Source: a virus
Virus record (IMG/VR): IMGVR_UViG_3300031952_000112
Coordinates: 1 to 27,512 of that record
DNA: 27,512 bases
Reading direction: 5' to 3' (one strand)
In this document: one piece after another, positions 8,380 through 27,509 of the stretch
Layout: each line of letters begins with the position of its first letter
Position numbering within the stretch: position 1 is the stretch's first letter
Translations under genes and position numbers: made by a program
The notes under the pieces: model-generated
Database searches by the model: none
Told to the model about the DNA's origin: nothing
What the model saw: the letters and a program-made list of their open reading frames with translations, nothing else

Positions 8380-9408
8380 TTACCTAGAGCGTCGAAGTGC
8401 TATGAGTGATTTGAGCGTGGCGGGCTTCATGAGGTCTTGAACGGCTTGTCTTGGGTCTAGACCGGCCTTTTTCATATCATTCCAGTCTTTATGTGGATCT
8501 GGCGGGACAGAATAAAAAATTTTACCATCAAAATATGGTTTCAATACATTATAATTGGCCCATATTGAGCTCAATCCTGCCTTAATACCATGAGCGTCTG
8601 GTTTATCATTGTCAGCACCCAATATAACATAACCTGGATTTAACGCTAATGCCTTACGGACCTGCTTGGCAGACAATATTGCGCCGCCCATAGCGACAGC
8701 CCCGAAGCCTATATTAATTGAATCAATGATCGATTCCACTATTATTAGTGGACCACCGGGCTCGACAAAATCGAATCCATATAAGAAATCAGATTTAACT
8801 ACGCCAATGTTTTCCGATGGGAACATAAATCTTTTGTTGACGATCTCCCTACTTTGCCAATATACAACCATACCAAATTCAACATATGGGAATATAACCG
8901 TTGTATTGTCATAGTGTATAAAATAACGTTTAACCTCTTCGGTTGTGATACCTCTATACGATAAATATCCAAATGCTACTCTCCGCGCAGCGGTACCGTC
9001 ATCAATATCAATTCTCCTAGCCCCATCTGGCAACTTTAATTCTATTTCCTCTGGTAAGTCTTCCTCTTCGTGTTCATTCCTATTTTCTCTTAGCCAATCT
9101 TTTGGGTCAACCTTAACTCCACTAATCTCTTTCAAGGCTTCAAAGAATGTAATCCCCTTATATTCTTGCACCAGTTTGATAAAAGAACCATCGTGCCCTT
9201 GGTGACCAGGACGCCAATCATGAACCCAAAATCCCTTTCTTTTACCGTCACCCGCCTTGATTTCTTTCTCGACTAGACTAACATTATAGTGACTGCCTGA
9301 GTCACCCCACGGATTTGGCATTACTATCTCTTGGCCACCTTTTCTAATTTTATAATTAGTGAAATGCTTTTCGACCCAGGCTAATATCATTTGACCATTA
9401 AGTTTCAT
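8380..9408 (-). CDS. TOPRIM DNA primase-like protein with degenerate zinc domain
   Basis: A 342-residue protein. Residues 213-285 form a TOPRIM core: the glycine-preceded acidic strand IIVESIIDS (Glu225), GAVAMGG, and YVILGADNDKPD with Asp266 and Asp268. KDWNDM (307-312) matches the KDxND motif of DnaG-type primases and phage TOPRIM proteins. Residues 55-95 (WRPGHQGHDGSFIKLVQEYKG, then FFEALKEISG) have the layout of the helix after the CHC2 primase zinc ribbon (G-x-x-GD-x-x-x-F-[VI] and F-x-EA), but the metal-binding cysteines are absent. Expected role: primer synthesis, or another TOPRIM phosphotransfer. There is no clear ribosome site before ATG 9408. Sitting inside a tail-gene block is unusual for a primase. 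Confidence 0.75.
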   Translation of the reverse strand: MKLNGQMILAWVEKHFTNYKIRKGGQEIVMPNPWGDSGSHYNVSLVEKEIKAGDGKRKGFWVHDWRPGHQGHDGSFIKLVQEYKGITFFEALKEISGVKVDPKDWLRENRNEHEEEDLPEEIELKLPDGARRIDIDDGTAARRVAFGYLSYRGITTEEVKRYFIHYDNTTVIFPYVEFGMVVYWQSREIVNKRFMFPSENIGVVKSDFLYGFDFVEPGGPLIIVESIIDSINIGFGAVAMGGAILSAKQVRKALALNPGYVILGADNDKPDAHGIKAGLSSIWANYNVLKPYFDGKIFYSVPPDPHKDWNDMKKAGLDPRQAVQDLMKPATLKSLIALRRSR

Positions 9409-12985: not shown

Positions 12986-15844
12986 CTATTGCGTCTGGGT
13001 GACAACTACCCCACCAGCCGCCAGGACTTCTTCTGCGGCGAAACTCTGTTCGGTCCTGAGCACAACCAGATTAAGCACAATGAATTCGGCGGCGCGTGTT
13101 GGCTTCAGAAAGACCGATACCCAGAGCTCATTGCGATCAATACGCTCCGGGGTGTTGTTGGTCTCATCGCATACCACCTTGTATGCCGTCAGCCCTCTCC
13201 TTGCCATAACGTCGCTCAGCAGCGGGCTGATCGTGTTGGTCACCAGCAGCCTGAGGAACTTATCGTTCGGCTCGAAGAGGAAGAATCTCAGAGTCCTTAT
13301 CAGGATCTTCTTCAAGTAAATCAGAAGCATCCTGACATTAACCCTGTCAAGCGCCGAATCCTTGCGCTGTAGGGTCCTCTGACCCCACACCGTGATCCCG
13401 TCCTGCGGGAAATTCACGATCGGGTTGACGGCGTTATTATATCCGTAGAGAAGATCGCGTTCGCCCTGCGTCGGATTGTACTCAAGGTCAAGCGCCGTCA
13501 GCAACCGCCCCCTGTTAAGACCAGCAGGGGCGAACCACATTTCCGCCACTCTAGATGTCCTTGCTATCACTCCCGCAATAAACCCAGATGGCGGAATGAA
13601 GATCTCGCCGCTGTTGAACTGGTCAAATATCTTGGTCCAAGACCAGTAGAGAGCGCCGTAGCTTGAATTAAGAGCAGCTGTTAGGTCGCTCAGGAGCATC
13701 CCATTGTGCCAGTCCACCACCTGTTGCGGCCTCAATCCGAATGGCGGGTCAATGATGTACAGGCAGTCGCCACGGCCTTCGCACAGCTGCAGACCCTGTG
13801 CAATAACTGCGCCGGAGCTATTGCCCGGAACCACTAGAAGCGTAATATCGTACACTTCTGGGTTCTCGAATGCGTACATGCCCGATGCTAGCGACGGGTT
13901 GCCAATAATGGCGCTATCAAGGTAGGAGCTAAATGCAGGATCTGCTGGGATGCCATTAGCTCCACCATCGAAAGTCTCAGTATTGAACAACCCAGGCATC
14001 CTGAGTTCGAGTGTGGTTGGATCTGTTGGGTCATTGCCGAGGTATGTCGGCCTCTCTTCCCAATTGATCCACTTATTACCATTAATGCCACCAATGGTGG
14101 TGCTTGGGTTTATTAGATTGGCGATGTATCTGTCATTAGTTGGATCGAAACTAACATCGTCAATCCGCTCAACCTCAATCCCTGATAGATCTCTGATCTT
14201 GATGGTATAAACGCTTGGTTGGTTATTGAACTGCTCGAGCGCCATCACAAAGTTGTTGATCCATGTGCCAGGCGATTGAGCCACAAAGAACCCGACAATA
14301 TTCTGATAGAACGCAGAGTCCGATGCGCATTCATCGCTACCAGGATCAGTCTCGCACGATAGCGGTGTTGATGGGTCAAGAGCCCCAGGAGTCGGCATAA
14401 TCACCCTTGGATCGGTAAATGGGCGGTATGGAACCGAGTAGGGGTAAGGAACATCAAGTTCTTCTGAGAGCCTAAGCGTCTTAATGTGGCTATAATCAGC
14501 CATCATTCTAAGTTGATCGAACTGATGGCCAACAACCGTAGCGGCCACCACCAAATAATCATCATCAGTGATTTGTATTGCAAACGATTCATAATATCTC
14601 TCACCAGCCTTGACCCCACCATTGTTTAGATAATTGGCCATAATAGCTGGTGATATCCCAACCCCAACCGGGATCGAAACGGCGAGATCTACCGTCGCAT
14701 CCGCGCCGACACACAAGAAGTCAGCTCTATTCTTCTGCGTGTTGATGTTATAAGGTCCAGTATCCTGGCCAACCACGTGACTACGCGGCATATCGTATGC
14801 CCACTTCGAGATACCGACCTCAAGGCACCAAGCCTCAGTATCAACAACCTGGATCCTCTCACCGGCAGTATCGGTCCTAATCCAGATGTTGCCAGAAATC
14901 GCCACTGCTTTGAAATCTACACCGGCACCAACCAGAAGGTTGATTGCATCGGCGAATAAGCTAGGATCGGTGAACGTGGTGCCGTCTACAAATGCGAATA
15001 TGCCCTGAGAGACGCCTTCCACCTCAACCTCAAACGACCTATTATCTGGACGGGCCTTCCAGCAGAACGAATCGCTCGCCTCGATTGGAGAGGAACCAGT
15101 CACTATGATCTCGCCAATCAGGCAGCTATCATCGTCTCCGGACCCGATAGCGATCGGCATTGACGTGCCAGGATCTACGCTCTCCACGATTGAGCCAGAT
15201 CCAATCACCTTACCGTCGCTATTTCTGATGATTTCGTATTCTGCACCATCAACCGTTGAGCCAGACGAAACGTCTGGACCCTTGGTGATTAGAATGCAGA
15301 ACGAGTCATCTATGGCCCCGCAATATGCATCGCTAAGGCCAGTCCCGACAAAATTAATCGTCGCATTCGTCGGGCCGAGTGTCGTACTCTCATCGACATC
15401 ATTGAATTCGATATCATATACATCGGCTGCATGAAACACGACGGGCGCCAATGTTGTCGGTGACCTGAGCTGAATCTTGCCAAAATCGATTCCGCTAAAG
15501 ATAGCGATCCTTCCCCAGCCATGACCCTTTGCTCCGCTGGTATCAATGCAAATATCAGCCAATTCTTCTGACTGACCTTCGTCGCATTCAATACCAACTC
15601 TCAATATCCAGGCTCCATTCCCTTCCTCAAGGTATGCAAGAGCTGCATACCCGAGATTGGATTCTGGGAATGGATTCCCGAATTGATCGATGAATTGATC
15701 GGCATTTGAGACGAATGTGGGGATGTTTATCGGCCCCTTATTCGCCGTGCCGATGAAAGCCGGGATAACATCGCTCACGTTAGCTGGCAGTACGCTGAGG
15801 TCGATCTCTCGCGGAAAGACCCCAGGGCTCAGGAAGACCGCCAT
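12986..15844 (-). CDS. Tail sheath protein (gp18-like), large form
   Basis: A 952-residue protein with a strong GGAGG ribosome site. The N-terminus (FLSPGVFPREIDLS, VIPAFIGTANKGP, then a Phe/Gly-rich segment and YLEEGNGAWILRVG) is the classic sheath opening, with the strand that swaps into neighbouring subunits. The C-terminal third holds the conserved core: FIPPSGFIAGVIART, then APAGLNRGRL, then YNNAVNPIVNFPQDGITVWGQRTLQRKDSALDRVNVRMLLIYLKK and a closing beta hairpin. T4 gp18 is about 660 aa, so roughly 300 residues of extra, Asp/Ser/Gly-rich beta domain lie in the middle (about 100-550), presumably exposed on the outer surface. Codon use is noticeably GC-ending compared with neighbouring genes. 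It contracts to drive the tube through the envelope. Confidence 0.93.
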   Translation of the reverse strand: MAVFLSPGVFPREIDLSVLPANVSDVIPAFIGTANKGPINIPTFVSNADQFIDQFGNPFPESNLGYAALAYLEEGNGAWILRVGIECDEGQSEELADICIDTSGAKGHGWGRIAIFSGIDFGKIQLRSPTTLAPVVFHAADVYDIEFNDVDESTTLGPTNATINFVGTGLSDAYCGAIDDSFCILITKGPDVSSGSTVDGAEYEIIRNSDGKVIGSGSIVESVDPGTSMPIAIGSGDDDSCLIGEIIVTGSSPIEASDSFCWKARPDNRSFEVEVEGVSQGIFAFVDGTTFTDPSLFADAINLLVGAGVDFKAVAISGNIWIRTDTAGERIQVVDTEAWCLEVGISKWAYDMPRSHVVGQDTGPYNINTQKNRADFLCVGADATVDLAVSIPVGVGISPAIMANYLNNGGVKAGERYYESFAIQITDDDYLVVAATVVGHQFDQLRMMADYSHIKTLRLSEELDVPYPYSVPYRPFTDPRVIMPTPGALDPSTPLSCETDPGSDECASDSAFYQNIVGFFVAQSPGTWINNFVMALEQFNNQPSVYTIKIRDLSGIEVERIDDVSFDPTNDRYIANLINPSTTIGGINGNKWINWEERPTYLGNDPTDPTTLELRMPGLFNTETFDGGANGIPADPAFSSYLDSAIIGNPSLASGMYAFENPEVYDITLLVVPGNSSGAVIAQGLQLCEGRGDCLYIIDPPFGLRPQQVVDWHNGMLLSDLTAALNSSYGALYWSWTKIFDQFNSGEIFIPPSGFIAGVIARTSRVAEMWFAPAGLNRGRLLTALDLEYNPTQGERDLLYGYNNAVNPIVNFPQDGITVWGQRTLQRKDSALDRVNVRMLLIYLKKILIRTLRFFLFEPNDKFLRLLVTNTISPLLSDVMARRGLTAYKVVCDETNNTPERIDRNELWVSVFLKPTRAAEFIVLNLVVLRTEQSFAAEEVLAAGGVVVTQTQ

Positions 15845-17579: not shown

Positions 17580-18166
17580 TCGTGCCTGATTTTGATGGCC
17601 TTATCGCCAGTGAGCAATTCGGTCATCGCAGTGTAATACAACCATCTGTACATGAAATTCCCAGAATCATAAGCATTTAGGACTCTGAAAAAGAATTGCC
17701 TTGGTTCTTGAGCAAGCATTGAGAATGCTGCGCCATAAGGAACCCTAATAACATCGCCAAGTACAATTAATTTATCGGCAAATTTCCTCAGAATGGCAGC
17801 TCTACTAAAGATGATCTTTAATTTTAGTGGATTATCAATTCCCCACCTAGTATATTCATAAGAAACAGTATCTACTTTAATATAGGCTTTAATATCTGAT
17901 CCGCTTGTGTACAATGGATCAGCATCTTCATCCCAGACTTCTTTGTCCTCATTATCTCCTTTTGGTATCTTCTTGAAGACCGTAACCCAAGCTCCACTAA
18001 GATTGATTAACTCCTCGGCCATTGTCTCAGCATATCCAAGATCTGGTTTATCATGATTGAACAACGATAATTGAGAAAACTCTTTTTCAATATCGCTTCT
18101 CATGTCTGGCACTGCGCCAGCACTAGATACTTGGACATTCCTTGGATTAAAGTTATATATTGGCAT
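17576..18166 (-). CDS. Neck protein, gp14-like
   Basis: The ATG at 18166 (MPIYNFNP) is chosen because an AGGAC ribosome site precedes it; starting earlier would overlap the 815-aa gene by 30 codons. The protein has 196 residues. GYAETMAEELINLSGAWVTVFKKI followed by a strand-rich centre and LGDVIRVPYGAAFSMLAQEPRQFFFRVLNAYDSGNFMYRW matches the T4 gp14 plan (an [LI]-x-[DE]-x-L-x-x-[ED] helix, then G-D-x-I-x-[FV]-P and an F-[YF]-x-[LV] strand with a 'G-[KN]-F-x-[YH]' ending). In T4, gp13 and gp14 form the neck ring above gp15. The reading is moderately supported. Confidence 0.6.
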   Translation of the reverse strand: MPIYNFNPRNVQVSSAGAVPDMRSDIEKEFSQLSLFNHDKPDLGYAETMAEELINLSGAWVTVFKKIPKGDNEDKEVWDEDADPLYTSGSDIKAYIKVDTVSYEYTRWGIDNPLKLKIIFSRAAILRKFADKLIVLGDVIRVPYGAAFSMLAQEPRQFFFRVLNAYDSGNFMYRWLYYTAMTELLTGDKAIKIRHE

Positions 18167-20600
18167 CAAACAGTCCTGCAGCACCACACTTTGTGGCAAG
18201 TTCAATAATTTCGTCGTATTTGTCTCGCAACACGGGCCTACCACTAATTATAGCATCCCATATGATTGAAATTGATTCGGCAACAACCTGTTTGTCTTCA
18301 CCTGACGTCATCATCTTTTGAAGGTGCTCTATTACGGTTGGTGATACTGAATTCATGCGCTCATTAAACGTCTTCCTAATTTTAAGCATGTTCATTTTTA
18401 TTGTTGGGCTATAGCCACTTAAGGCCGAGTTATCATTAAGCAAAATTGCTGACCAGCAACTATATGATTTTGGATTGAATATGTCTATCGACTCGCTAAC
18501 TGGCACAACACGCAAAATCTTCGTTATCGGAGCAGATTCACATAGCAGGAGATCAAAAAACTCATCGGCTTTCATAATGTCGCGATTACTAGACGATTCA
18601 GTCGTATTGTTCTTAATCATTTTGATACTATGATATGCCCTTTTGGCGTCCGTCGATCCCAAATCAGCAACAATAGAGGCCGCAATATGATCAATCACTT
18701 CATTATATCCAAACTTATCTTCACATAGCATCGAGCTAACAAATTGGTGTATACACTCAGATAAATTTATTATGTCTTCTGGATCAAGGCTGTCCAAAAT
18801 GTCTAATGCCGCTACGGCATCTTTGGAATCCAATCTATCGAAATTAAACGGCACCTTAAATCTACCAAGACTGTCCATATATTTCTGAACCGCCAATTCG
18901 GCAGTTGACTCGTCAACACCAACCGCATCAGCATATGACTTTATTGTCTCGTCCCAATATGGATATTTAGACCCAGGATATCGCATCAAATATTTCTCTT
19001 CTTCCTTAGCCTTCCTCGCTATATCTTCTCTTCCCTTAATTTTAGCAATGTATTCAGGAGACTCTTTATACTTAGCTGAGGCTTTCTCTGATCTCTCTTT
19101 CCTTTTAACAGCAGAAAATCCCTTTACGTGCCCAATGATGTCAGACCACTCTTGTGGTTTGTTCTCCAGCGGCGGCATAGTAGTTTTCATTTTAGATGCA
19201 AGTTTGGATTCGCTACCATATTCTTCTTCAGCTTTGGCCAAGAGATCGCCAACCTTCATTCCTTGTGGTAGACCCTCTGGATAATGTGTCTTAACAAACC
19301 ATTTAATATATCTTGGATCAACAGGGCCTGTCCACTCACCTTGTTCAGTAAACCACCATGGCGCAATGTCCTGAACATTGTCTATCTCGAGCGCGCCAAG
19401 CAGAGCTTTAATGTCTGGAGTGCCAGTTAGTTTGTCGGTAACATCATCTATATCGCGTGGATCGGCGTGTGCGATCGGATATGAAATCTCAAACTTGGGA
19501 AGACCTAAATGCTCACCGTATCTCTTGTCTTCGACGCGACCAGTAACATAAAACGATCTGTTGCTATCGACCCATCTTCTAAATTTATTATGATTTATCT
19601 CTTGTTGCGGCGATATATTTTCAATTCTTGACCATTGAATTTCTTCTCTATCTTCAATACCAAGAGGTGGCCATGCATCTATCTTGAAGTAAGGAAGTGA
19701 TTGCTTGTTTTTATCGATTATCTTGCGTAATTTTTCAAAAACCTCCCTATTTGTTTTACCAAGTGATTCAACAGAAATGACTATATGTCTTCTAATATCA
19801 TTCGTCTCCGCATCTTCGTCTTCGGATTTAGCAGGCGTTGGCACGGGCGCTGCGGGAGTGGGGGAGGCGACCTTCTTCGCAAGCGCGTCCCGCTCGCGGG
19901 CGGCTCTAGCAACATCGATTCCAAACTTGTCATTTTTATCCCTAAAGCCCGCACCAAGAGGTGTCCTAGCACCATGCTGTGGATTAAATGGTTCTAGAAT
20001 ATTCCATATCCACGTTACAATCAGTTCCCATGGAGATGGCGCTTGCTTGGCAATGCGTTGGTTGTATTTGCCACTTCCAGCTGGCCGAGTATCTTTGTAT
20101 ATTTCGATATCAGCCCAATTCCATCCTTTGCACGATTTTTTACCGGTGGCGGGGCACATCACCAGTTTATCTGCCGTGCCATCGTCGATATGCTTTTTAA
20201 GTATTCCTTTGACATATCCAATATCTTCTTCGGCAGTCTCTGATTTTCTCTCTTTAGATAGTGTTGCCTTTTTATCACCACCCCCAGCTCCCAATGCTAA
20301 AACTTGTCGTTGGAATTGCAGATCTTTTTCTAATTCTTCAATCCTATCTTTTAAAGCCAATCCGATCGTAACTTTCCCACTACCACCACACAATTTGCAG
20401 TCGCGCCTTGGTTCTTCACCTCTGACCGTAGCCTTATCTAGACCATAAACGTTGATGAAAGTCTCACTCTCTCTATTATCCTTGTCTTCCGGTACTCTAG
20501 GCTCAATGAACATGACGGTATAGTCATCTACATCTTCGGTCATTAGGGAACCGAATCTCTTTTGAACTTCAAACAGCAATTCTTTTTCCGCATTATTCAT
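18153..20600 (-). CDS. Large unrecognised protein (815 aa) in the neck module with Cys motifs and N-terminal MTED
   Basis: Coupled to the 129-aa gene (TAATG, ribosome site AAGGA). Residues 20-23 read MTED, near a hydrophobic helix. Cys68/Cys71 lie in CKLCGGSGK, a single DnaJ-like CxxCxGxG unit, and Cys149 and Cys157 (MCPATGKKSC) may complete a zinc site. A coiled-coil-like stretch spans about 80-100, an Ala/Pro linker about 245-262, and a beta/alpha domain about 268-380. A Lys/Glu-rich helix follows near 505-550, and the last 250 residues are all-helical, like a HEAT-type bundle. No enzyme motif is recognised. T4-like phages usually have gp13 and gp14 adjacent, and here this gene separates them. 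It may be an internal virion or connector-associated protein. Function unknown. Confidence 0.75.
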   Translation of the reverse strand: MNNAEKELLFEVQKRFGSLMTEDVDDYTVMFIEPRVPEDKDNRESETFINVYGLDKATVRGEEPRRDCKLCGGSGKVTIGLALKDRIEELEKDLQFQRQVLALGAGGGDKKATLSKERKSETAEEDIGYVKGILKKHIDDGTADKLVMCPATGKKSCKGWNWADIEIYKDTRPAGSGKYNQRIAKQAPSPWELIVTWIWNILEPFNPQHGARTPLGAGFRDKNDKFGIDVARAARERDALAKKVASPTPAAPVPTPAKSEDEDAETNDIRRHIVISVESLGKTNREVFEKLRKIIDKNKQSLPYFKIDAWPPLGIEDREEIQWSRIENISPQQEINHNKFRRWVDSNRSFYVTGRVEDKRYGEHLGLPKFEISYPIAHADPRDIDDVTDKLTGTPDIKALLGALEIDNVQDIAPWWFTEQGEWTGPVDPRYIKWFVKTHYPEGLPQGMKVGDLLAKAEEEYGSESKLASKMKTTMPPLENKPQEWSDIIGHVKGFSAVKRKERSEKASAKYKESPEYIAKIKGREDIARKAKEEEKYLMRYPGSKYPYWDETIKSYADAVGVDESTAELAVQKYMDSLGRFKVPFNFDRLDSKDAVAALDILDSLDPEDIINLSECIHQFVSSMLCEDKFGYNEVIDHIAASIVADLGSTDAKRAYHSIKMIKNNTTESSSNRDIMKADEFFDLLLCESAPITKILRVVPVSESIDIFNPKSYSCWSAILLNDNSALSGYSPTIKMNMLKIRKTFNERMNSVSPTVIEHLQKMMTSGEDKQVVAESISIIWDAIISGRPVLRDKYDEIIELATKCGAAGLFDANI

Positions 20601-21778: not shown

Positions 21779-22300
21779 CTAAATCACATTCATATGGTAT
21801 TTATATTGAAATTGCTTGTCCACGTTACTATCATTATAAACATCTTCATAATCGACGTTTAATCGATCAACAACCACCGTGGCATCAGAGCCATATTTGG
21901 ACTTTAGATCATTATGAACTTTATCAGCCGCTTCTTTATTATCAAATCCAACTTCAAATCCAAAATAATTTTCGCCTGTTATTGTACCAAATTCAGACCA
22001 TGTCAGAAGCGTACCACGCTTCTTAAGCTCATGTCGCTTTACTAAATCCCATCCTATAACCTCAAAATAGTACACCTCAATGCTCTTCAGCATAGCTGGA
22101 ACCGAGATCTTCAATTGCCATGGGCCATATTCTGCTGATTCTTTAGCCTGCTTTTCAGAATAAAACTTGCATTCGCTATTTGGGCACTCAACGTTAGAGA
22201 ACCCAATATACGCTCTTTTGTTTCCACATGATGGGCATGCAGCTTCTGCTAGCACATCCGGGTCTTCGGTAATCAATCTAGCTATATCTCTTGGGTCCAC
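21779..22300 (-). CDS. Zinc-ribbon protein (173 aa) with IARLITEDP N-terminus
   Basis: Starts at GTG 22300 with AGGA ahead of it. Residues 6-14 are IARLITEDP, identical in sequence and position to the start of the double peptidase at 25540. A four-Cys zinc ribbon follows: C22/C25 (CPSC) and C39/C44 (CPNSEC). The remaining 110 residues are mixed alpha/beta with aromatic strands (KSIEVYYFEVIGWD, NYFGFEVGFDNKEAA). The family is unrecognised. The gene overlaps the end of the upstream 184-aa gene's region by only a short gap (10 nt). The N-terminal motif could be a capsid-targeting, prohead-protease-cleaved tag, which would place this protein inside the head. Confidence 0.7.
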   Translation of the reverse strand: MDPRDIARLITEDPDVLAEAACPSCGNKRAYIGFSNVECPNSECKFYSEKQAKESAEYGPWQLKISVPAMLKSIEVYYFEVIGWDLVKRHELKKRGTLLTWSEFGTITGENYFGFEVGFDNKEAADKVHNDLKSKYGSDATVVVDRLNVDYEDVYNDSNVDKQFQYKYHMNVI

Positions 22301-22937: not shown

Positions 22938-23513
22938 ATGTTCATCACACAAAAAGATCACAATCAATATCTAAAGAAACTAATCATAGAAAAACCAGAT
23001 GAAGTAATGATAGCAACATACAATATATATGCTGGAATCCTTCACGACGGGGAAGATGCGCACTCGTGGGGAGAAAAATATCATAGCGACGCTCACGAAA
23101 TCCTAGATATGCTATGCGACTGCAAGAGGGTCAGAATAATTGTCGGAACGCCACCGTTATCGTTGTGTAAGGCTGGTTGCGAAGACTGCATAGCAAAGCA
23201 GTATAAGTCGGCTACAAGGCTGTCCAAGCATGCGCTAAAATGGCCGAAATATCAATGGAAATATACTGGTGATTTTCATTTGAAATGCTACTTGTTCAAG
23301 AAAGATGGTATCATGAAAGGAGTCATTGGTGGTAGAAACCTTTCAGATAGCAACTGGGTTGACGTAACCTTCAATATAGATGACAAACATTGCAAAGTAA
23401 TCGAATACCTATTTAACCAATCGTGGGATAAGTCAACCGACATTACAATTGAGAATTTAGAGTCAAGTATTATGAAGCAAGTGGAAGAAGCTAGTTGGTC
23501 GTCTAACAAATGA
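22938..23513 (+). CDS. Phospholipase D/HKD-like nuclease
   Basis: Starts at ATG 22938, five bases after a perfect GGAGG; an earlier in-frame ATG lacks this. The protein has 191 residues. His114-Leu-Lys116 (FHLKCYLF) followed by GVIGGRNLSDSNW (131-140) matches the HxK...G[GS]xN part of the PLD superfamily. The usual HxKx4D Asp is slightly displaced (Asp123). There is one HKD motif, so a dimer would make the active site, as in the Nuc/BfiI-type endonucleases. Cysteines at 60, 62, 77, 81 and 84 form a CxC...CxxxCxxC cluster that could bind a metal and is not a standard part of the fold. It is transcribed opposite to the structural block. A role in host DNA degradation or phage defence is inference. 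Confidence 0.7.
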   Translation: MFITQKDHNQYLKKLIIEKPDEVMIATYNIYAGILHDGEDAHSWGEKYHSDAHEILDMLCDCKRVRIIVGTPPLSLCKAGCEDCIAKQYKSATRLSKHALKWPKYQWKYTGDFHLKCYLFKKDGIMKGVIGGRNLSDSNWVDVTFNIDDKHCKVIEYLFNQSWDKSTDITIENLESSIMKQVEEASWSSNK

Positions 23514-23866
23514 ATGCTGAGACAACCGAGCACACGCAATGTTCTGCGATATCTCTCTTAGCAGATTATTTATTAACCCGAGGAATTAAGTCATCATATG
23601 TTTCTGGATATTTCCCATCAGAATCAATCTGTGATTTTATTAGGGTATATATTTCCGATCAATATATATTATCATTATTCTTAAGCGGCACATATGATAG
23701 CGATGCTGTTCCAGACGATAAAGTGATAATTGCTAGAGTTGATTACCAAATTCACAATCAAATAATACATGGAACAATATTAACGCATATTAATTATCAT
23801 GATCCAAAATCATTCGAATTAATAGCCGACGCCATAGAGTATGGGAGATTCACACCAGAAGACTAA
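23510..23866 (+). CDS. Hypothetical protein (118 aa) downstream of the PLD-like nuclease
   Basis: ATG overlaps the PLD-like stop (ATGA), so the two are coupled. The protein has an N-terminal hydrophobic helix (ISLLADYLLTRG), an acidic-strand centre (YILSLFLSGTYDSDAVPDDKVIIARVDYQ) and an acidic C-terminus. No family is recognised. Its stop codon overlaps that of the opposite-strand zinc gene by three bases. Being locked to the nuclease gene suggests it helps or controls it, but that is inference from position. Confidence 0.65.
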   Translation: MNAETTEHTQCSAISLLADYLLTRGIKSSYVSGYFPSESICDFIRVYISDQYILSLFLSGTYDSDAVPDDKVIIARVDYQIHNQIIHGTILTHINYHDPKSFELIADAIEYGRFTPED

Positions 23867-24534
23867 AATATTTCTTTGGGGCCGCGCATCCCAAATTTGC
23901 CTCTACCCTTCGGCGGTGGTCCCAGATGATACTTCTGGTCGTGATGTTCTTTGCATAAGATACCAGGCTTAAGCAGTTTAGCAGCTAAATTCTGCGCAAT
24001 ATTGAGCGGCAGATTTCTATGGGTTAGATCATCAATATATTCCCTTACATAATGATTCCAGTCTAAGTCGCTTGGTGGTATGTCCATTCCACACTTAGAA
24101 CAATAATATTTAATCTCTGGATCGCCACACAATCCTGGCTTGCCATCAATAACTGTCGGCGCTTTGCATGATAGGACTGGTCCAGTTTTAGTAGTTTCCT
24201 GGCCAACTTCAGCTGGTGAGGGAACCACACTCACAAGCGCTGGCAGTGGGGCCATGTTTATGTCATGTTTTTCCTTTAAATGAGATGGTACATCAATACC
24301 GGAAATGGCGCACATACTATCGATATTTCCCCTCTGCTGAGAGGTAAGCTTTTGATTTCCTGCCATCTCTCTAGCACAGATGTCGCATATATATTGTGTT
24401 GCTTGATAATTAGTTGCGTCAGTTGGGCGTTTTCCTCTTGATCGTCTAATGTGTGGGGCGTAATAATTGGTAACTATATCTTCTGTTATAACCCCATTTA
24501 AGATTGTACACTCATATAAGATTGATAGCTTCAT
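23863..24534 (-). CDS. HNH-like zinc protein (223 aa) with N-terminal ITED
   Basis: Ribosome site GAGGA precedes ATG 24534. Residues 16-19 read ITED. A CxxC (ICDIC) is followed at a distance by a Cys and HLKEKH (H-x4-H), a possible zinc finger. The C-terminal domain reads CSKCG, then DLDWNH, then an Asn/Leu-rich stretch, then LCKEHHDQKYH. This is the order of an HNH endonuclease with zinc knuckles (CxxC, the [DW]-N/H-H pair, a central Asn, then CxxHxxxK). The usual DHI is replaced by DWNH, so catalysis is not certain. The middle is Pro/Val-rich. It could be an HNH nuclease or a zinc-bound structural protein. Confidence 0.55.
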   Translation of the reverse strand: MKLSILYECTILNGVITEDIVTNYYAPHIRRSRGKRPTDATNYQATQYICDICAREMAGNQKLTSQQRGNIDSMCAISGIDVPSHLKEKHDINMAPLPALVSVVPSPAEVGQETTKTGPVLSCKAPTVIDGKPGLCGDPEIKYYCSKCGMDIPPSDLDWNHYVREYIDDLTHRNLPLNIAQNLAAKLLKPGILCKEHHDQKYHLGPPPKGRGKFGMRGPKEIF

Positions 24535-24901: not shown

Positions 24902-24975
24902 GCGGCTGTAGTTCAGTGGTAGAATGCGAGGTTTCCAACCTTGTGATGTGGGTCCGATTCCCGCCAGCCGCACCA
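24902..24975 (+). tRNA. tRNA-Gly (UCC), CCA encoded
   Basis: Acceptor GCGGCTG pairs with CAGCCGC, anticodon stem CGAGG/CCTTG, loop TTTCCAA with UCC at 24934-24936. Discriminator A followed by encoded CCA. Reads GGA/GGG. Confidence 0.93.
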
Positions 24976-24982
24976 GGTTAAA

Positions 24983-25051
24983 GGGCTGCGCTCCGGGGAG
25001 CAGATTCGGCTCCAAACCGAGTCTAGCGAGGATCGACACCTCGGCAGCCCG
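24983..25051 (+). tRNA. tRNA-Trp (CCA), compact D arm
   Basis: Perfect 7-bp acceptor stem (GGGCTGC/GCAGCCC), anticodon stem TTCGG/CCGAG, loop CTCCAAA with CCA at 25012-25014, and a perfect T stem CGAGG/CCTCG. The D region is only 15 nt between acceptor and anticodon arm, folding as GCTC-CGGG-GAGC directly after the acceptor, without the normal U8-A9 linker. The T loop begins with A instead of T54. Discriminator G, no encoded CCA. It could be functional but non-canonical, or decaying. Confidence 0.75.
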
Positions 25052-25053
25052 CT

Positions 25054-25129
25054 GGGCCTGTAGCTCAATTGGGAGAGCGCTGGCTTTGCAAGCCAGAGGT
25101 CGCCGGTTCGACCCCGGTCAGGTCCACCA
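25054..25129 (+). tRNA. tRNA-Ala (UGC), CCA encoded
   Basis: Acceptor GGGCCTG pairs with CAGGTCC and contains the G3-U70 wobble that identifies alanine tRNAs. Anticodon stem CTGGC/GCCAG, loop TTTGCAA with UGC at 25087-25089. Normal D and T arms, CCA encoded. Confidence 0.95.
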
Positions 25130-25170
25130 GCTCTTGAACGGGTTCTTTGACAGTTTGCCCACGGCCAAAC

Positions 25171-25186
25171 ACGGCATGAGTGCCGT
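25171..25186 (+). other. Small hairpin between tRNA genes
   Basis: ACGGCA-TGAG-TGCCGT, 6-bp stem with tetraloop, in the 104-nt spacer between tRNA-Ala and tRNA-Asp. Likely a processing element; no gene is seen in the spacer. Confidence 0.4.
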
Positions 25187-25208
25187 AGGCCATCAGCGTA
25201 TGAAGACC

Positions 25209-25231
25209 AAGGGCCGGGCTATCCGGCCCTT
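25209..25231 (+). other. Strong hairpin just before tRNA-Asp
   Basis: AAGGGCCGG-GCTAT-CCGGCCCTT, 9-bp GC-rich stem followed by only TC before the tRNA. It resembles a terminator but lacks a T tract, so a processing stem is more likely. Confidence 0.45.
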
Positions 25232-25233
25232 TC

Positions 25234-25304
25234 GGGGCTATAGTGTAGTGGTAGCACGCGAGCCTGTCGAGTTCGTAGTAGGGGATCGTAACCCCTTAGC
25301 CCCG
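25234..25304 (+). tRNA. tRNA-Asp (GUC)
   Basis: Acceptor GGGGCTA/TAGCCCC, D stem GTG/CAC, anticodon stem CGAGC/GTTCG, loop CTGTCGA with GUC at 25266-25268, T stem AGGGG/CCCCT. Discriminator G, as expected for Asp. The T loop is ATCGTAA, with A where T54 is normal, as in the neighbouring tRNA-Trp. No encoded CCA. Confidence 0.9.
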
Positions 25305-25344
25305 CTAAAAATCAAACGTATTATAAATGCAGAGATTAAAGAAA

Positions 25345-25524
25345 ATGAAACTAACAATATTAAGTGAAGACGGTGCTATACAAGCATTGGCCAATAAATA
25401 TGGAGAATGGATTAAAAACGGTTATGAAGATAGGCAAAGTAGATTAGATGCTCTTCTTAGCAACGCCTCCACACAAATCCGCGAGAAGGTGAAAAGTCTA
25501 ATAAAACATAGATTCAAAGAATAA
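25345..25524 (+). CDS. Small hypothetical protein (59 aa)
   Basis: The ATG at 25345 (MKLTILSEDG) is preferred to one six codons upstream, since neither has a clear ribosome site and a weak AGATTAAAG lies in front of this one. The product is mostly a charged helix (ALANKYGEWIKNGYEDRQSRLDALLS, then REKVKSLIKHRF). The N-terminus, ILSED at residues 5-9, loosely resembles the ITED tags of other genes here. It lies between tRNA-Asp and the double peptidase and may be cotranscribed with both. Confidence 0.5.
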   Translation: MKLTILSEDGAIQALANKYGEWIKNGYEDRQSRLDALLSNASTQIREKVKSLIKHRFKE

Positions 25525-25539
25525 TGACTTGTGAGACTC

Positions 25540-26922
25540 GTGAAAATAAATCAAATAGCCAGGCTAATAACTGAAGACCCAAATATATCAGTTAAATATC
25601 GTAATTATGATAGATTGTTGGCAGATTTTGGCAGAGAAGCAACAAGATTGGGTCTTGAAACGCTAAATATTGGAAACGTCGATGGCCTTCCTATAATGCT
25701 GGCGAAGCCGGTCAAATCAATAAATGGTTTAAACAATTTAATGGTCATAGCTGGGTTCCACGGAGAAGAGCCAGCAGCTGTTCTTGGTGCAGTTAGATTT
25801 TTAAAACGTGCGCCGAATAATACATTAAAACACATTAACTTTTCTATTATTCCAACAATCAACCCATACGGATTTATCAACGCTACAAGATATGGTAAGA
25901 GCAACAAGTCAACCAACCAAGTATATGATGGTGACAAATCAGACCCATCAGAAAATTGTAAAATATTACTAAAAAACGACAAGTTAATCAAAGAACTATC
26001 AAAAAACGGTATGTTGGACTTGCACGAAAATACAGATGTAGGCGATGAATTCTACGTTTATACCAATGCGAGTGAAGATAGAGAAGATCGTTCACCAGCC
26101 AGTGATTTGGCTGAGATAGCTAGATTAACGGCTCTACGACATTTCCAGCAAAGACCTGATGGGCACTACAAGGACACTAACCCTGGCAAAGCAGTGTACG
26201 ACATAAAGGGCGGAATAGTTTGGAACTCCCACGATGGATCATATGACGACTATATTGGTAAGATAAATCCAACGCTTATATTGGAAACACCAGCAAAAGA
26301 TGATGATAAATTAGAATCTAGAATGGCTGCGCACGAAGATCTAATTAATGCGATCGTTGCGCATCTAAGCACTGACTTGAATGACTCAAGCATAATGATG
26401 CTACCAAAATCGCACCAAACAACGAGCAATAGTTGCGGTGGTGCTTGCCTTAGATCTATCATGCGATATTATGGTATTGACATTCCGGAGCACAAAGTTA
26501 ATGAGTTGGCCAAAATATCGCACGAAGGTATTGACCCAGAAATGATAACGTCAGCAGCCGCAAAGTTTGGTCTAAAATCCAAAATATTCCAAAATTGGAA
26601 TATTAATGGTATTAAAAAATTCCTAAATAAGAAAATACCAGTTATAGTTGGAATAGTCGCTTGGGGCCATGACGACAAAGATTACTCTAAAGACGATGAT
26701 GGCCACTATGTTGTGGCAACAGGATATGATAAGTGCCGAATTTACTTTGAAGACCCATCAATTAAAGATAACGACAATAGCAAGGGATTCCTAAGTTGGC
26801 TTGAATTTTACTATAGATGGCACGATGTCGATGGAAAAATGATTGGCATTCCAATATGGAGTGACAATAAAATCAATAAAGTTTTATCTAAGAACAAAAT
26901 AAAGCTTATACGCATTCCATAG
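25540..26922 (+). CDS. Two-domain peptidase: M14 zinc carboxypeptidase-like plus C39-like cysteine peptidase
   Basis: A GTG at 25540 is chosen over one three codons upstream because it places IARLITEDP at residues 6-14, exactly as in the 22300 gene; 460 aa. Domain 1 (about 45-280): GFHGEEP with His74 and Glu77, NPYGFINATRYG, LDLHENT with His162 as third zinc ligand, and LILETP with Glu249 as likely catalytic base. This is the succinylglutamate-desuccinylase/carboxypeptidase layout. Domain 2 (about 285-440): a Gln293-containing lead into NSCGGAC (Cys299), then DGHYVVATGYD (His389) and FEDP (Asp405), the papain-like C39_2 arrangement. All key residues of both sites look intact. Targets could be peptidoglycan stem peptides or host/phage proteins. 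The tag hints at packaging in the head (inference). Confidence 0.8.
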   Translation: MKINQIARLITEDPNISVKYRNYDRLLADFGREATRLGLETLNIGNVDGLPIMLAKPVKSINGLNNLMVIAGFHGEEPAAVLGAVRFLKRAPNNTLKHINFSIIPTINPYGFINATRYGKSNKSTNQVYDGDKSDPSENCKILLKNDKLIKELSKNGMLDLHENTDVGDEFYVYTNASEDREDRSPASDLAEIARLTALRHFQQRPDGHYKDTNPGKAVYDIKGGIVWNSHDGSYDDYIGKINPTLILETPAKDDDKLESRMAAHEDLINAIVAHLSTDLNDSSIMMLPKSHQTTSNSCGGACLRSIMRYYGIDIPEHKVNELAKISHEGIDPEMITSAAAKFGLKSKIFQNWNINGIKKFLNKKIPVIVGIVAWGHDDKDYSKDDDGHYVVATGYDKCRIYFEDPSIKDNDNSKGFLSWLEFYYRWHDVDGKMIGIPIWSDNKINKVLSKNKIKLIRIP

Positions 26923-27174: not shown

Positions 27175-27208
27175 AAACACCTCTTAAAACTCATTATATT
27201 TTTGTTTT

Positions 27209-27279
27209 GGGTCGGTAGCTCAGTGGTCGAGCACACGGCTGAAGACCGTGCCACGGGAGTTCGATTCTCCCCCGGCCCA
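27209..27279 (+). tRNA. tRNA-Phe (GAA)
   Basis: Acceptor GGGTCGG/CCGGCCC, anticodon stem CACGG/CCGTG, loop CTGAAGA with GAA at 27241-27243, T stem GGGAG/CTCCC with normal TTCGATT loop. Discriminator A, no encoded CCA. Confidence 0.93.
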
Positions 27280-27285
27280 TCAAAC

Positions 27286-27360
27286 TGGCTCGTCGTCTAA
27301 TCGGTAGGACCGCAGACTCTGGATCTGCGTATTGAGGTTCGAACCCTCACGAGCCAACCA
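27286..27360 (+). tRNA. tRNA-Gln (CUG), CCA encoded
   Basis: Acceptor TGGCTCG/CGAGCCA, anticodon stem GCAGA/TCTGC, loop CTCTGGA with CUG at 27319-27321, T loop TTCGAAC. Reads CAG. CCA follows discriminator A. Confidence 0.93.
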
Positions 27361-27364
27361 GCGA

Positions 27365-27435
27365 GGGGGTGTGGTGAAGAGGGATCACACGACAATGGCA
27401 TTGTCGAGTCGAGGGTTCGATTCCCTCCATCTCCA
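27365..27435 (+). tRNA. tRNA-Ala (GGC)
   Basis: Acceptor GGGGGTG/CATCTCC with a G3-U70 wobble, D stem GTGA/TCAC, anticodon stem CGACA/TGTCG, loop ATGGCAT with GGC at 27397-27399, T stem GAGGG/CCCTC with loop TTCGATT. No encoded CCA. Reads GCC/GCU. Confidence 0.82.
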
Positions 27436-27438
27436 TTA

Positions 27439-27509
27439 GGGTCCGTGGTTCAGCGGGAGAACGCCAGCTCCGCAAGCTGGAGACGCGAGTTCGATTCTCG
27501 CCGGGTCCA
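27439..27509 (+). tRNA. tRNA-Ala (CGC) with C33
   Basis: Acceptor GGGTCCG/CGGGTCC with G3-U70, anticodon stem CCAGC/GCTGG, loop TCCGCAA with CGC at 27471-27473. Position 33 is C instead of the near-universal U. T stem GCGAG/CTCGC with TTCGATT. No encoded CCA. Reads GCG. Confidence 0.8.

What the first reader, a model, noticed from the sequence alone, without database searches (positions are those of the whole stretch)
25540..26922. Fusion of an M14-like carboxypeptidase and a C39-like cysteine peptidase in one phage protein
Both active sites look complete (His74/Glu77/His162/Glu249 and Gln293/Cys299/His389/Asp405). I know of no standard phage protein with this pair. A zinc carboxypeptidase that trims stem peptides plus a papain-like peptidase would be a compact wall-modifying or host-protein-cleaving tool, and its N-terminal tag suggests virion association.
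Basis: partly seen in the sequence, partly recalled or inferred. Interest (0 to 1): 0.62.

Follow-up and report, generated by a model that had tools for sequence, protein, structure and literature searches.

The report
Head-packaged double hydrolase of phage
A large tailed phage carries one protein that joins a zinc amide-hydrolase to a papain-like cysteine protease behind a short leader resembling a capsid-packaging tag, so it is probably loaded into the virus head and injected with the DNA to cut host molecules.

Summary
The ORF is real (25540-26922; GTG at 25531 also possible), and both domains are confirmed by profiles and structure prediction. The N-terminal half is an M14-superfamily hydrolase of the AstE/AspA type. 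Its closest functionally tested relatives are Shewanella N-acetylornithine deacetylases, not carboxypeptidases, and the canonical carboxylate-anchoring Arg is Gln127. The C-terminal half is a C39-type papain-like peptidase with an intact Gln/Cys/His/Asp set. No second M14-C39 fusion was found, but the two genes occur separately in 11 IMG/VR contigs and two huge-phage genomes, often a few kb apart. The C39 domain belongs to an all-phage clade whose members carry T4-like capsid-targeting leaders or are fused to portal proteins; another phage clade includes MuF fusions. In the window, IARLITEDP starts this protein and an unrelated zinc-ribbon protein, with different codons; the related [ILVM][ILVM][ST]ED occurs in five N-termini and nowhere else in 7,827 residues. 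Best reading: a head-packaged, prohead-protease-trimmed, injected effector; C39 would cut a host protein (GG sites, as in the toxin Cpe1, are a guess) and the zinc domain would hydrolyse an amide. Virion location and substrate are inferred. Wall degradation is not supported.

The parts
25531..26922 (+). fused gene: leader + AstE/AspA-M14-like hydrolase + C39-like cysteine peptidase (460 aa from GTG 25540, 463 aa from GTG 25531)
25555..25581 (+). IARLITEDP, core of the proposed capsid-targeting/prohead-protease tag; predicted cleavage after the Glu (inferred)
   Evidence: same nine residues at the N-terminus of 21779-22300, encoded by different codons; model residues 1-16 pLDDT <50
25600..26373 (+). 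zinc hydrolase domain, M14 superfamily, AstE/AspA type (residues about 21-278)
25759..25770 (+). zinc ligands His74 and Glu77 (HxxE)
   Evidence: invariant columns
25915..25920 (+). Asn126-Gln127, in place of the Asn-Arg substrate-carboxylate motif
   Evidence: alignment: NR/DR in L004, L005, L083, L108, L109, L077, L080; NS in L001/L021/L022
26023..26025 (+). zinc ligand His162
   Evidence: Arg in L005 only
26284..26286 (+). catalytic Glu249
   Evidence: invariant
26395..26919 (+). C39-like papain-fold peptidase domain (residues about 286-460)
   Evidence: member of a supported all-phage clade
26416..26436 (+). oxyanion Gln293 and nucleophile Cys299
26704..26754 (+). catalytic His389 to Asp405
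25345..25524 (+). small ORF directly upstream on the same strand with a tag-like N-terminus MKLTILSEDG
21779..22300 (-). 173-aa zinc-ribbon protein with the same leader MDPRDIARLITEDP
18153..20600 (-). 815-aa protein of unknown function with N-terminal FGSLMTEDVDD
23863..24534 (-). 223-aa cysteine-rich protein with N-terminal GVITEDI

Best explanation
The protein is a virion-internal effector. Its N-terminal leader (about 12-15 residues, IARLITE|DP) works like the T4 capsid-targeting sequence: it takes the protein into the prohead core, and a gp21-type (S77) prohead protease cuts after the Glu. The mature two-domain enzyme stays in the head and enters the host with the DNA. There the C39 domain cleaves one or more cytosolic host proteins (a Gly-Gly site is the best guess from its nearest structural relatives LahT, PCAT1, ComA and the bacterial toxin Cpe1). 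The AstE/AspA-type zinc domain hydrolyses an amide bond on the same or a coupled target (an N-acyl or aminoacyl conjugate, or a freshly made C-terminus). Both would act in the first minutes of infection against host defence, or for takeover. Shown here: both domains and their catalytic residues, the shared tag, the recurrent link of the C39 domain to head proteins, the co-occurrence of the two genes. Inferred: packaging, cleavage, injection, activity, target.
For: Fold and catalytic residues. Tag in the window: [ILVM][ILVM][ST]ED occurs 5 times in the first 28 residues of 29 genes and 0 times in the other 7,827 residues (nominal P 7e-6; motif chosen after seeing it); IARLITEDP is shared by two otherwise unrelated proteins with only synonymous codon differences. 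Tag in relatives: stand-alone C39 genes begin MLEFRQWFEA, MGKFRSFLEA, MSFRQYIAEK, MLNFRGWFME and the like, the pattern of T4-type leaders; 13 of 39 phage homologues have the strict motif, 0 of 45 cellular ones (nominal P 1e-5). Neighbours of the pair in huge-phage locus L001 also begin with YSTYINEA, YNTYINEG, FKTYNED. S77 protease above cut-off in 6 of 14 records, beside a coiled-coil scaffold-like gene and a probable major capsid protein beginning NARFLNEA. Related C39 domains are fused to Phage_portal (L091, L098, L103, L105, L106) and Phage_Mu_F (L089, L102). The window's C39 falls in a 96/90-supported clade of 25 phage rows with the tagged and several portal-fused ones. Functional pairing: separate M14 and C39 genes 2-6 kb apart in L001, L005, L021, L022, L083; 9 of 25 C39-bearing IMG/VR contigs also have the M14 gene, against 0 of 23 S77-selected contigs with either gene. 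Precedent for the target type: Cpe1, a ComA-like toxin, cuts GyrB/ParE at GG (PMC12136450; fold match 9l5u Z 15). T4 IPI and Alt are head-packaged effectors (PMC9958956).
Against: The window has no capsid or prohead-protease gene, so the phage's own protease was not seen. T4 leaders have aromatic residues (YQEFIAE, from my own knowledge) that this tag lacks; only the core with the Glu agrees. Asp after the Glu is unusual next to the A-X-E-type sites described (PMC5694885). The motif tests were made after the motif was noticed. Not all phage C39 homologues are tagged, and the stand-alone M14 genes in L001/L021/L022 have no clear tag. Gln127 could mean that the zinc domain has lost its original activity.
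Confidence: 0.5

Rival explanations
1. Reversal of ATP-grasp-type conjugation: the two domains together remove an aminoacyl or short-peptide modification, or degrade a small peptide, made by RimK-like ligases in the host, rather than cutting a protein at GG. Delivery could still be by the head.
For: A Pelagicoccus gene cluster joins RimK, AstE_AspA_cat, a C39-type protein, a second RimK-like ATP-grasp, GCS2 and FGase. A Pseudomonadales protein fuses FGase to C39. Closest tested relative of the zinc half is an N-acetylornithine deacetylase. DUF3335, a C39-like family, is often fused to GNAT domains that may be peptide ligases (PMC10318531).
Against: The Pelagicoccus C39 is only distantly related, one cluster was looked at, and FGase-C39 was seen once in 294 genomes of its order. 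No ATP-grasp partner is known in the phage. C39 folds best onto Gly-Gly endopeptidases.
Confidence: 0.2
2. Peptidoglycan or muropeptide hydrolase: trims stem peptides at entry or lysis.
For: MpaA (murein tripeptide amidase) and PeiR (pseudomurein endoisopeptidase) are among the fold matches; weak match of the C39 half to an 'endolysin' PHROG (E 2e-4).
Against: No signal peptide, transmembrane segment or wall-binding domain seen; tag and relatives point to the head; the gene is not in a lysis cassette but between tRNA clusters beside another tagged ORF.
Confidence: 0.08
3. Head-maturation protease: the enzyme acts inside the prohead on phage proteins and never on the host.
For: C39 domains fused to portal and MuF proteins sit in the head; jumbo phages process many head proteins (PMC5694885).
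Against: S77 proteases already do this job in the relatives; presence is patchy among S77 phages (0 of 23), which PMC7824862 takes as a mark of host-directed peptidases; a zinc amidohydrolase is not needed for it.
Confidence: 0.1
4. The leader is not a capsid tag but another sorting signal (for example for a phage nucleus) or a shared leader of other function; the enzyme is made during infection and works in the cytoplasm.
For: The LITED core is only partly like T4 leaders; no virion data exist.
Against: Relatives' leaders match the T4 pattern closely and several of these phages have S77-type head modules; portal/MuF fusions.
Confidence: 0.12

Closest known systems
T4 internal proteins (IPI, IPII, IPIII) and Alt
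   Same: short N-terminal leader with a Glu cleavage site, enzyme or inhibitor carried in the head and injected (mechanism inferred here)
   Different: unrelated domains; T4 leader has aromatic residues; packaging not shown here
MuF polymorphic toxins and polyvalent proteins (PMC5576092, PMC5512222)
   Same: effector domains carried by head proteins; related C39 domains are fused to MuF and portal in IMG/VR contigs
   Different: the window protein has no MuF or portal domain; a text search of the two papers found no C39, papain or carboxypeptidase entry
Cpe1 papain-like interbacterial toxin (PDB 9l5u)
   Same: ComA/LahT-like papain fold with Cys-His-Asp, delivered into bacteria
   Different: delivered by bacterial secretion systems; no zinc domain; target of the phage enzyme unknown
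Shewanella SO_3749-type N-acetylornithine deacetylase (NCBIfam NF052223; PDB 2qvp, 3ieh, 3b2y)
   Same: fold and zinc site of the N-terminal half
   Different: 108 bits against a cut-off of 400; Asn-Arg motif is Asn-Gln; host enzyme is a metabolic single-domain protein
Stand-alone M14 and C39 genes of huge phages LR756501/LR756503 (735 kb) and LR756511 (595 kb)
   Same: same two domains in one genome, 3.5 kb apart in LR756501
   Different: separate genes; 28-41% identity

Membership tests
Peptidase C39 / C39_2 (papain-like clan) | profile match above curated cut-off | tested here: met
   57.4 vs 22 bits and 46.8 vs 24 bits
Peptidase C39 / C39_2 (papain-like clan) | Gln-Cys-His-Asp catalytic set | tested here: met
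   Q293, C299, H389, D405 aligned with invariant or near-invariant columns
Peptidase C39 / C39_2 (papain-like clan) | cleavage after Gly-Gly | not testable with these tools
   no enzyme assay
M14 metallocarboxypeptidase | Pfam Peptidase_M14 above cut-off | tested here: not met
   16.7 vs 21.6 bits
M14 metallocarboxypeptidase | zinc ligands HxxE...H and catalytic Glu | tested here: met
   H74, E77, H162, E249
M14 metallocarboxypeptidase | Asn-Arg that binds the C-terminal carboxylate | tested here: not met
   Asn126-Gln127
AstE/AspA-type amidohydrolase (PF24827) | profile above cut-off | tested here: met
   30.8 vs 25 bits
AstE/AspA-type amidohydrolase (PF24827) | hydrolysis of an N-acyl amino acid | not testable with these tools
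   no assay
NF052223 N-acetylornithine deacetylase | equivalog cut-off of 400 bits | tested here: not met
   108 bits
T4-type capsid-targeted internal head protein | N-terminal leader shared by unrelated proteins of the phage | tested here: met
   IARLITEDP in two proteins, related motif in five
T4-type capsid-targeted internal head protein | S77 prohead protease in the same phage | tested here: inconclusive
   present in relatives; window too short to hold it
T4-type capsid-targeted internal head protein | presence in virions and cleavage after Glu | not testable with these tools
   needs proteomics
MuF toxin / polyvalent protein | MuF, portal or large multidomain carrier in the same polypeptide | tested here: not met
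   only the two hydrolase domains found

The most novel reading that the evidence does not exclude
Large tailed phages use a so far undescribed class of head-delivered cysteine-protease effectors (C39 type), loaded by T4-like leaders or by fusion to portal/MuF proteins, that works with a zinc amidohydrolase to dismantle a host target at injection; in this phage the two partners became one polypeptide, which shows that they act on one pathway.
Probability: 0.4. Interest if true: 0.78.

Novelty: new variant of a known kind. Interest (0 to 1): 0.57.

Why it matters
Head-packaged proteins reach the host before any phage gene is expressed, so they are the first counter-defence. Protease effectors of this kind are poorly known in phages. 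The fusion links two enzymes that are separate genes elsewhere, which makes the pathway testable, and the leader gives a simple sequence rule to list further injected proteins in huge phages that cannot be cultured.

Tried and rejected
Search of IMG/VR with the whole protein alone: no relative. A second M14-C39 fusion was looked for with a joint alignment in genome contigs and viral contigs and by tblastn in phages and plasmids: none; plasmid hits are M14 genes only among the rows listed. The 220-431 match in L076 looked like a fusion of the same kind but is FGase-C39; a check of 294 genomes of the order found no second one. Full-length alignment of P0001 with single-domain relatives misaligned the M14 rows, so the halves were modelled apart. 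A broad leader regex on whole loci gave only a modest excess over internal control windows; a stricter test on the C39 family was used instead. Literature: no paper found that joins C39 peptidases and huge phages or ejection proteins; the amidoligase paper PMC3268129 is not held.

Full report
Observation. The window holds an open frame of 460 codons from GTG 25540 (or 463 from GTG 25531) to TAG 26922. Pfam places Peptidase_C39 at residues 291-410 (57.4 bits, cut-off 22), C39_2 at 293-406, and AstE_AspA_cat at 65-166 (30.8 bits, cut-off 25); Peptidase_M14 is below its cut-off. phmmer against PDB sequences gives three Shewanella 'putative metallopeptidases' at E 1e-18 to 1e-20 over residues 21-280. 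The halves were modelled separately (pLDDT 84 and 87). The first half matches 2qvp, 3ieh and 3b2y with TM about 0.8. The second matches LahT, PCAT1 and ComA double-glycine peptidases with Z 18-20, then a C39-like Bacillus protein, the Cpe1 toxin pair 9l5u (Z 15) and a CDI toxin (Z 14.5).

What the zinc half is. It is in the M14 superfamily but nearer to AstE/AspA-type amidohydrolases. NCBIfam's best match is NF052223, N-acetylornithine deacetylase of Shewanella, at 108 bits against a cut-off of 400; SO_3749 was shown by cross-complementation with E. coli argE to have that function (PMC3219624). That the PDB proteins, NF052223 and SO_3749 are the same family is my inference from genus, length and model name. 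Zinc ligands and catalytic Glu are kept, as is Arg117, but the Asn-Arg pair that holds the substrate carboxylate in most of the family is Asn-Gln here and Asn-Ser in L001/L021/L022. The name carboxypeptidase is therefore not safe.

Relatives. The protein as a whole has no relative in IMG/VR, but each half does. The huge phages LR756501/LR756503 (735 kb) have a free C39 gene and a free M14 gene 3.5 kb apart, and LR756511 (595 kb) has both about 26 kb apart. In IMG/VR the two genes lie 2-6 kb apart in L005, L021, L022 and L083. Of 25 contigs chosen for C39, 9 also carry the M14 gene (two pairs are near-duplicates); of 23 contigs chosen only for an S77 prohead protease, none carries either. The control contigs are shorter in sum (about 1.6 vs 4.0 Mb), so this is support, not proof.

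Link to the head. (1) Most stand-alone C39 genes in the window's part of the tree start with a leader such as MLEFRQWFEA, MGKFRSFLEA, MSFRQYIAEK or MLNFRGWFME, the form of T4 capsid-targeting sequences (T4 form from my own knowledge); cellular homologues start at the domain or with what looks like a secretion signal. (2) In L001 the neighbours of the pair begin YSTYINEA, YNTYINEG, FKTYNED. (3) S77 proteases occur in several of these records, next to a coiled-coil scaffold-like gene and a probable capsid protein that starts NARFLNEA or NARYLNEA; the similarity to the tag, AR(L/F)(I/L)(T/N)E, is my observation. (4) Related C39 domains are C-terminal fusions to Phage_portal in five contigs and to Phage_Mu_F in two. 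(5) The window's C39 lies in a supported clade of 25 phage rows with tagged and portal-fused members; the MuF fusions and one portal fusion lie in another phage clade.

The tag in this phage. IARLITEDP is at the N-terminus of the fusion and of the zinc-ribbon protein at 21779-22300; the 27 bases differ only at synonymous positions, so the peptide appears to be under selection. A related motif is at the N-terminus of three more proteins, including the small ORF just upstream. It occurs nowhere else in 7,827 residues; the motif was defined after the first cases were seen, so the P value is nominal. In the model residues 1-16 are disordered, as expected of a removable leader.

Mechanism. T4 packs IPI and Alt in its head, cuts their leaders with gp21 and injects them; IPI inhibits the GmrSD nuclease and Alt modifies RNA polymerase (PMC9958956). 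By analogy the fusion would be loaded, trimmed and injected. Papain-like enzymes of the ComA/LahT fold can be potent bacterial effectors: Cpe1 cuts GyrB and ParE at Gly-Gly (PMC12136450). I therefore take host-protein cleavage as the most likely role of the C39 half, with GG sites as a guess. The zinc half would act on an amide of the same or a coupled target. A rival with real support is the reversal of ATP-grasp conjugation: in one Pelagicoccus cluster RimK, AstE_AspA, C39, a second ATP-grasp, GCS2 and FGase stand together, and one Pseudomonadales protein fuses FGase to C39. A zinc amidohydrolase and a C39 domain have thus been joined at least twice, by different zinc domains.

Known or new. 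Head-delivered effectors are known (T4 internal proteins, MuF toxins, polyvalent proteins). A text search of the polyvalent-protein and MuF-toxin papers found no C39, papain or carboxypeptidase entry, the jumbo-phage survey mentions papain-like peptidases only as NlpC/P60, and literature searches found no link of C39 to huge phages or ejection proteins; the library holds only open papers. I rate it a new variant of a known kind. Confidence in a head-carried, injected effector is about 0.6; with a protein-cutting C39 as the main activity about 0.5.

Limits. The window is a 27.5-kb fragment with tail, baseplate and head-tail adaptor genes but no capsid or protease gene; no protein data exist; the contig sets are fragments, and the genome and viral scans use short conserved patterns, so distant fusions could be missed.

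Noticed in passing
L089:8186-10603, L102:8339-10357 (IMG/VR): MuF proteins with a C-terminal C39 domain; L089 also seems to hold an intein (LAGLIDADG) between the two.
   Followed up: partly
L091, L098, L103, L105, L106: Phage portal proteins with a C-terminal C39-type peptidase domain.
   Followed up: partly
L009, L011, L015: Two C39 genes close together in the same phage; where both starts are visible, one has a capsid-tag-like leader and one does not.
   Followed up: no
L076:1505-2845: Bacterial fusion of N-formylglutamate amidohydrolase with a C39 domain (Pseudomonadales).
   Followed up: partly
L192:3234-10968: Pelagicoccus gene cluster: RimB-like protease, RimK, AstE/AspA, PPK2, C39, RimK-like, GCS2, FGase.
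   Followed up: partly
IMG/VR record of L085, 26353-26970 (-): M14-like domain inside a 2837-aa open frame in a contig that also has a C39 gene; looks like a large multidomain phage protein.
   Followed up: no
window 12986-15844: Tail sheath of 952 aa in which mainly the C-terminal part is conserved; large additional region before it.
   Followed up: no
window 8380-9408: DNA-primase-like gene lying inside the tail/baseplate gene block.
   Followed up: no
window 22938-23513: 191-aa protein with HLKCYLF and GGRNLSDSNW, resembling a phospholipase-D-type HxK motif; no Pfam match.
   Followed up: no
window 24902-25305 and 27208-27509: Eight tRNA genes in two groups that flank the fusion gene.
   Followed up: no
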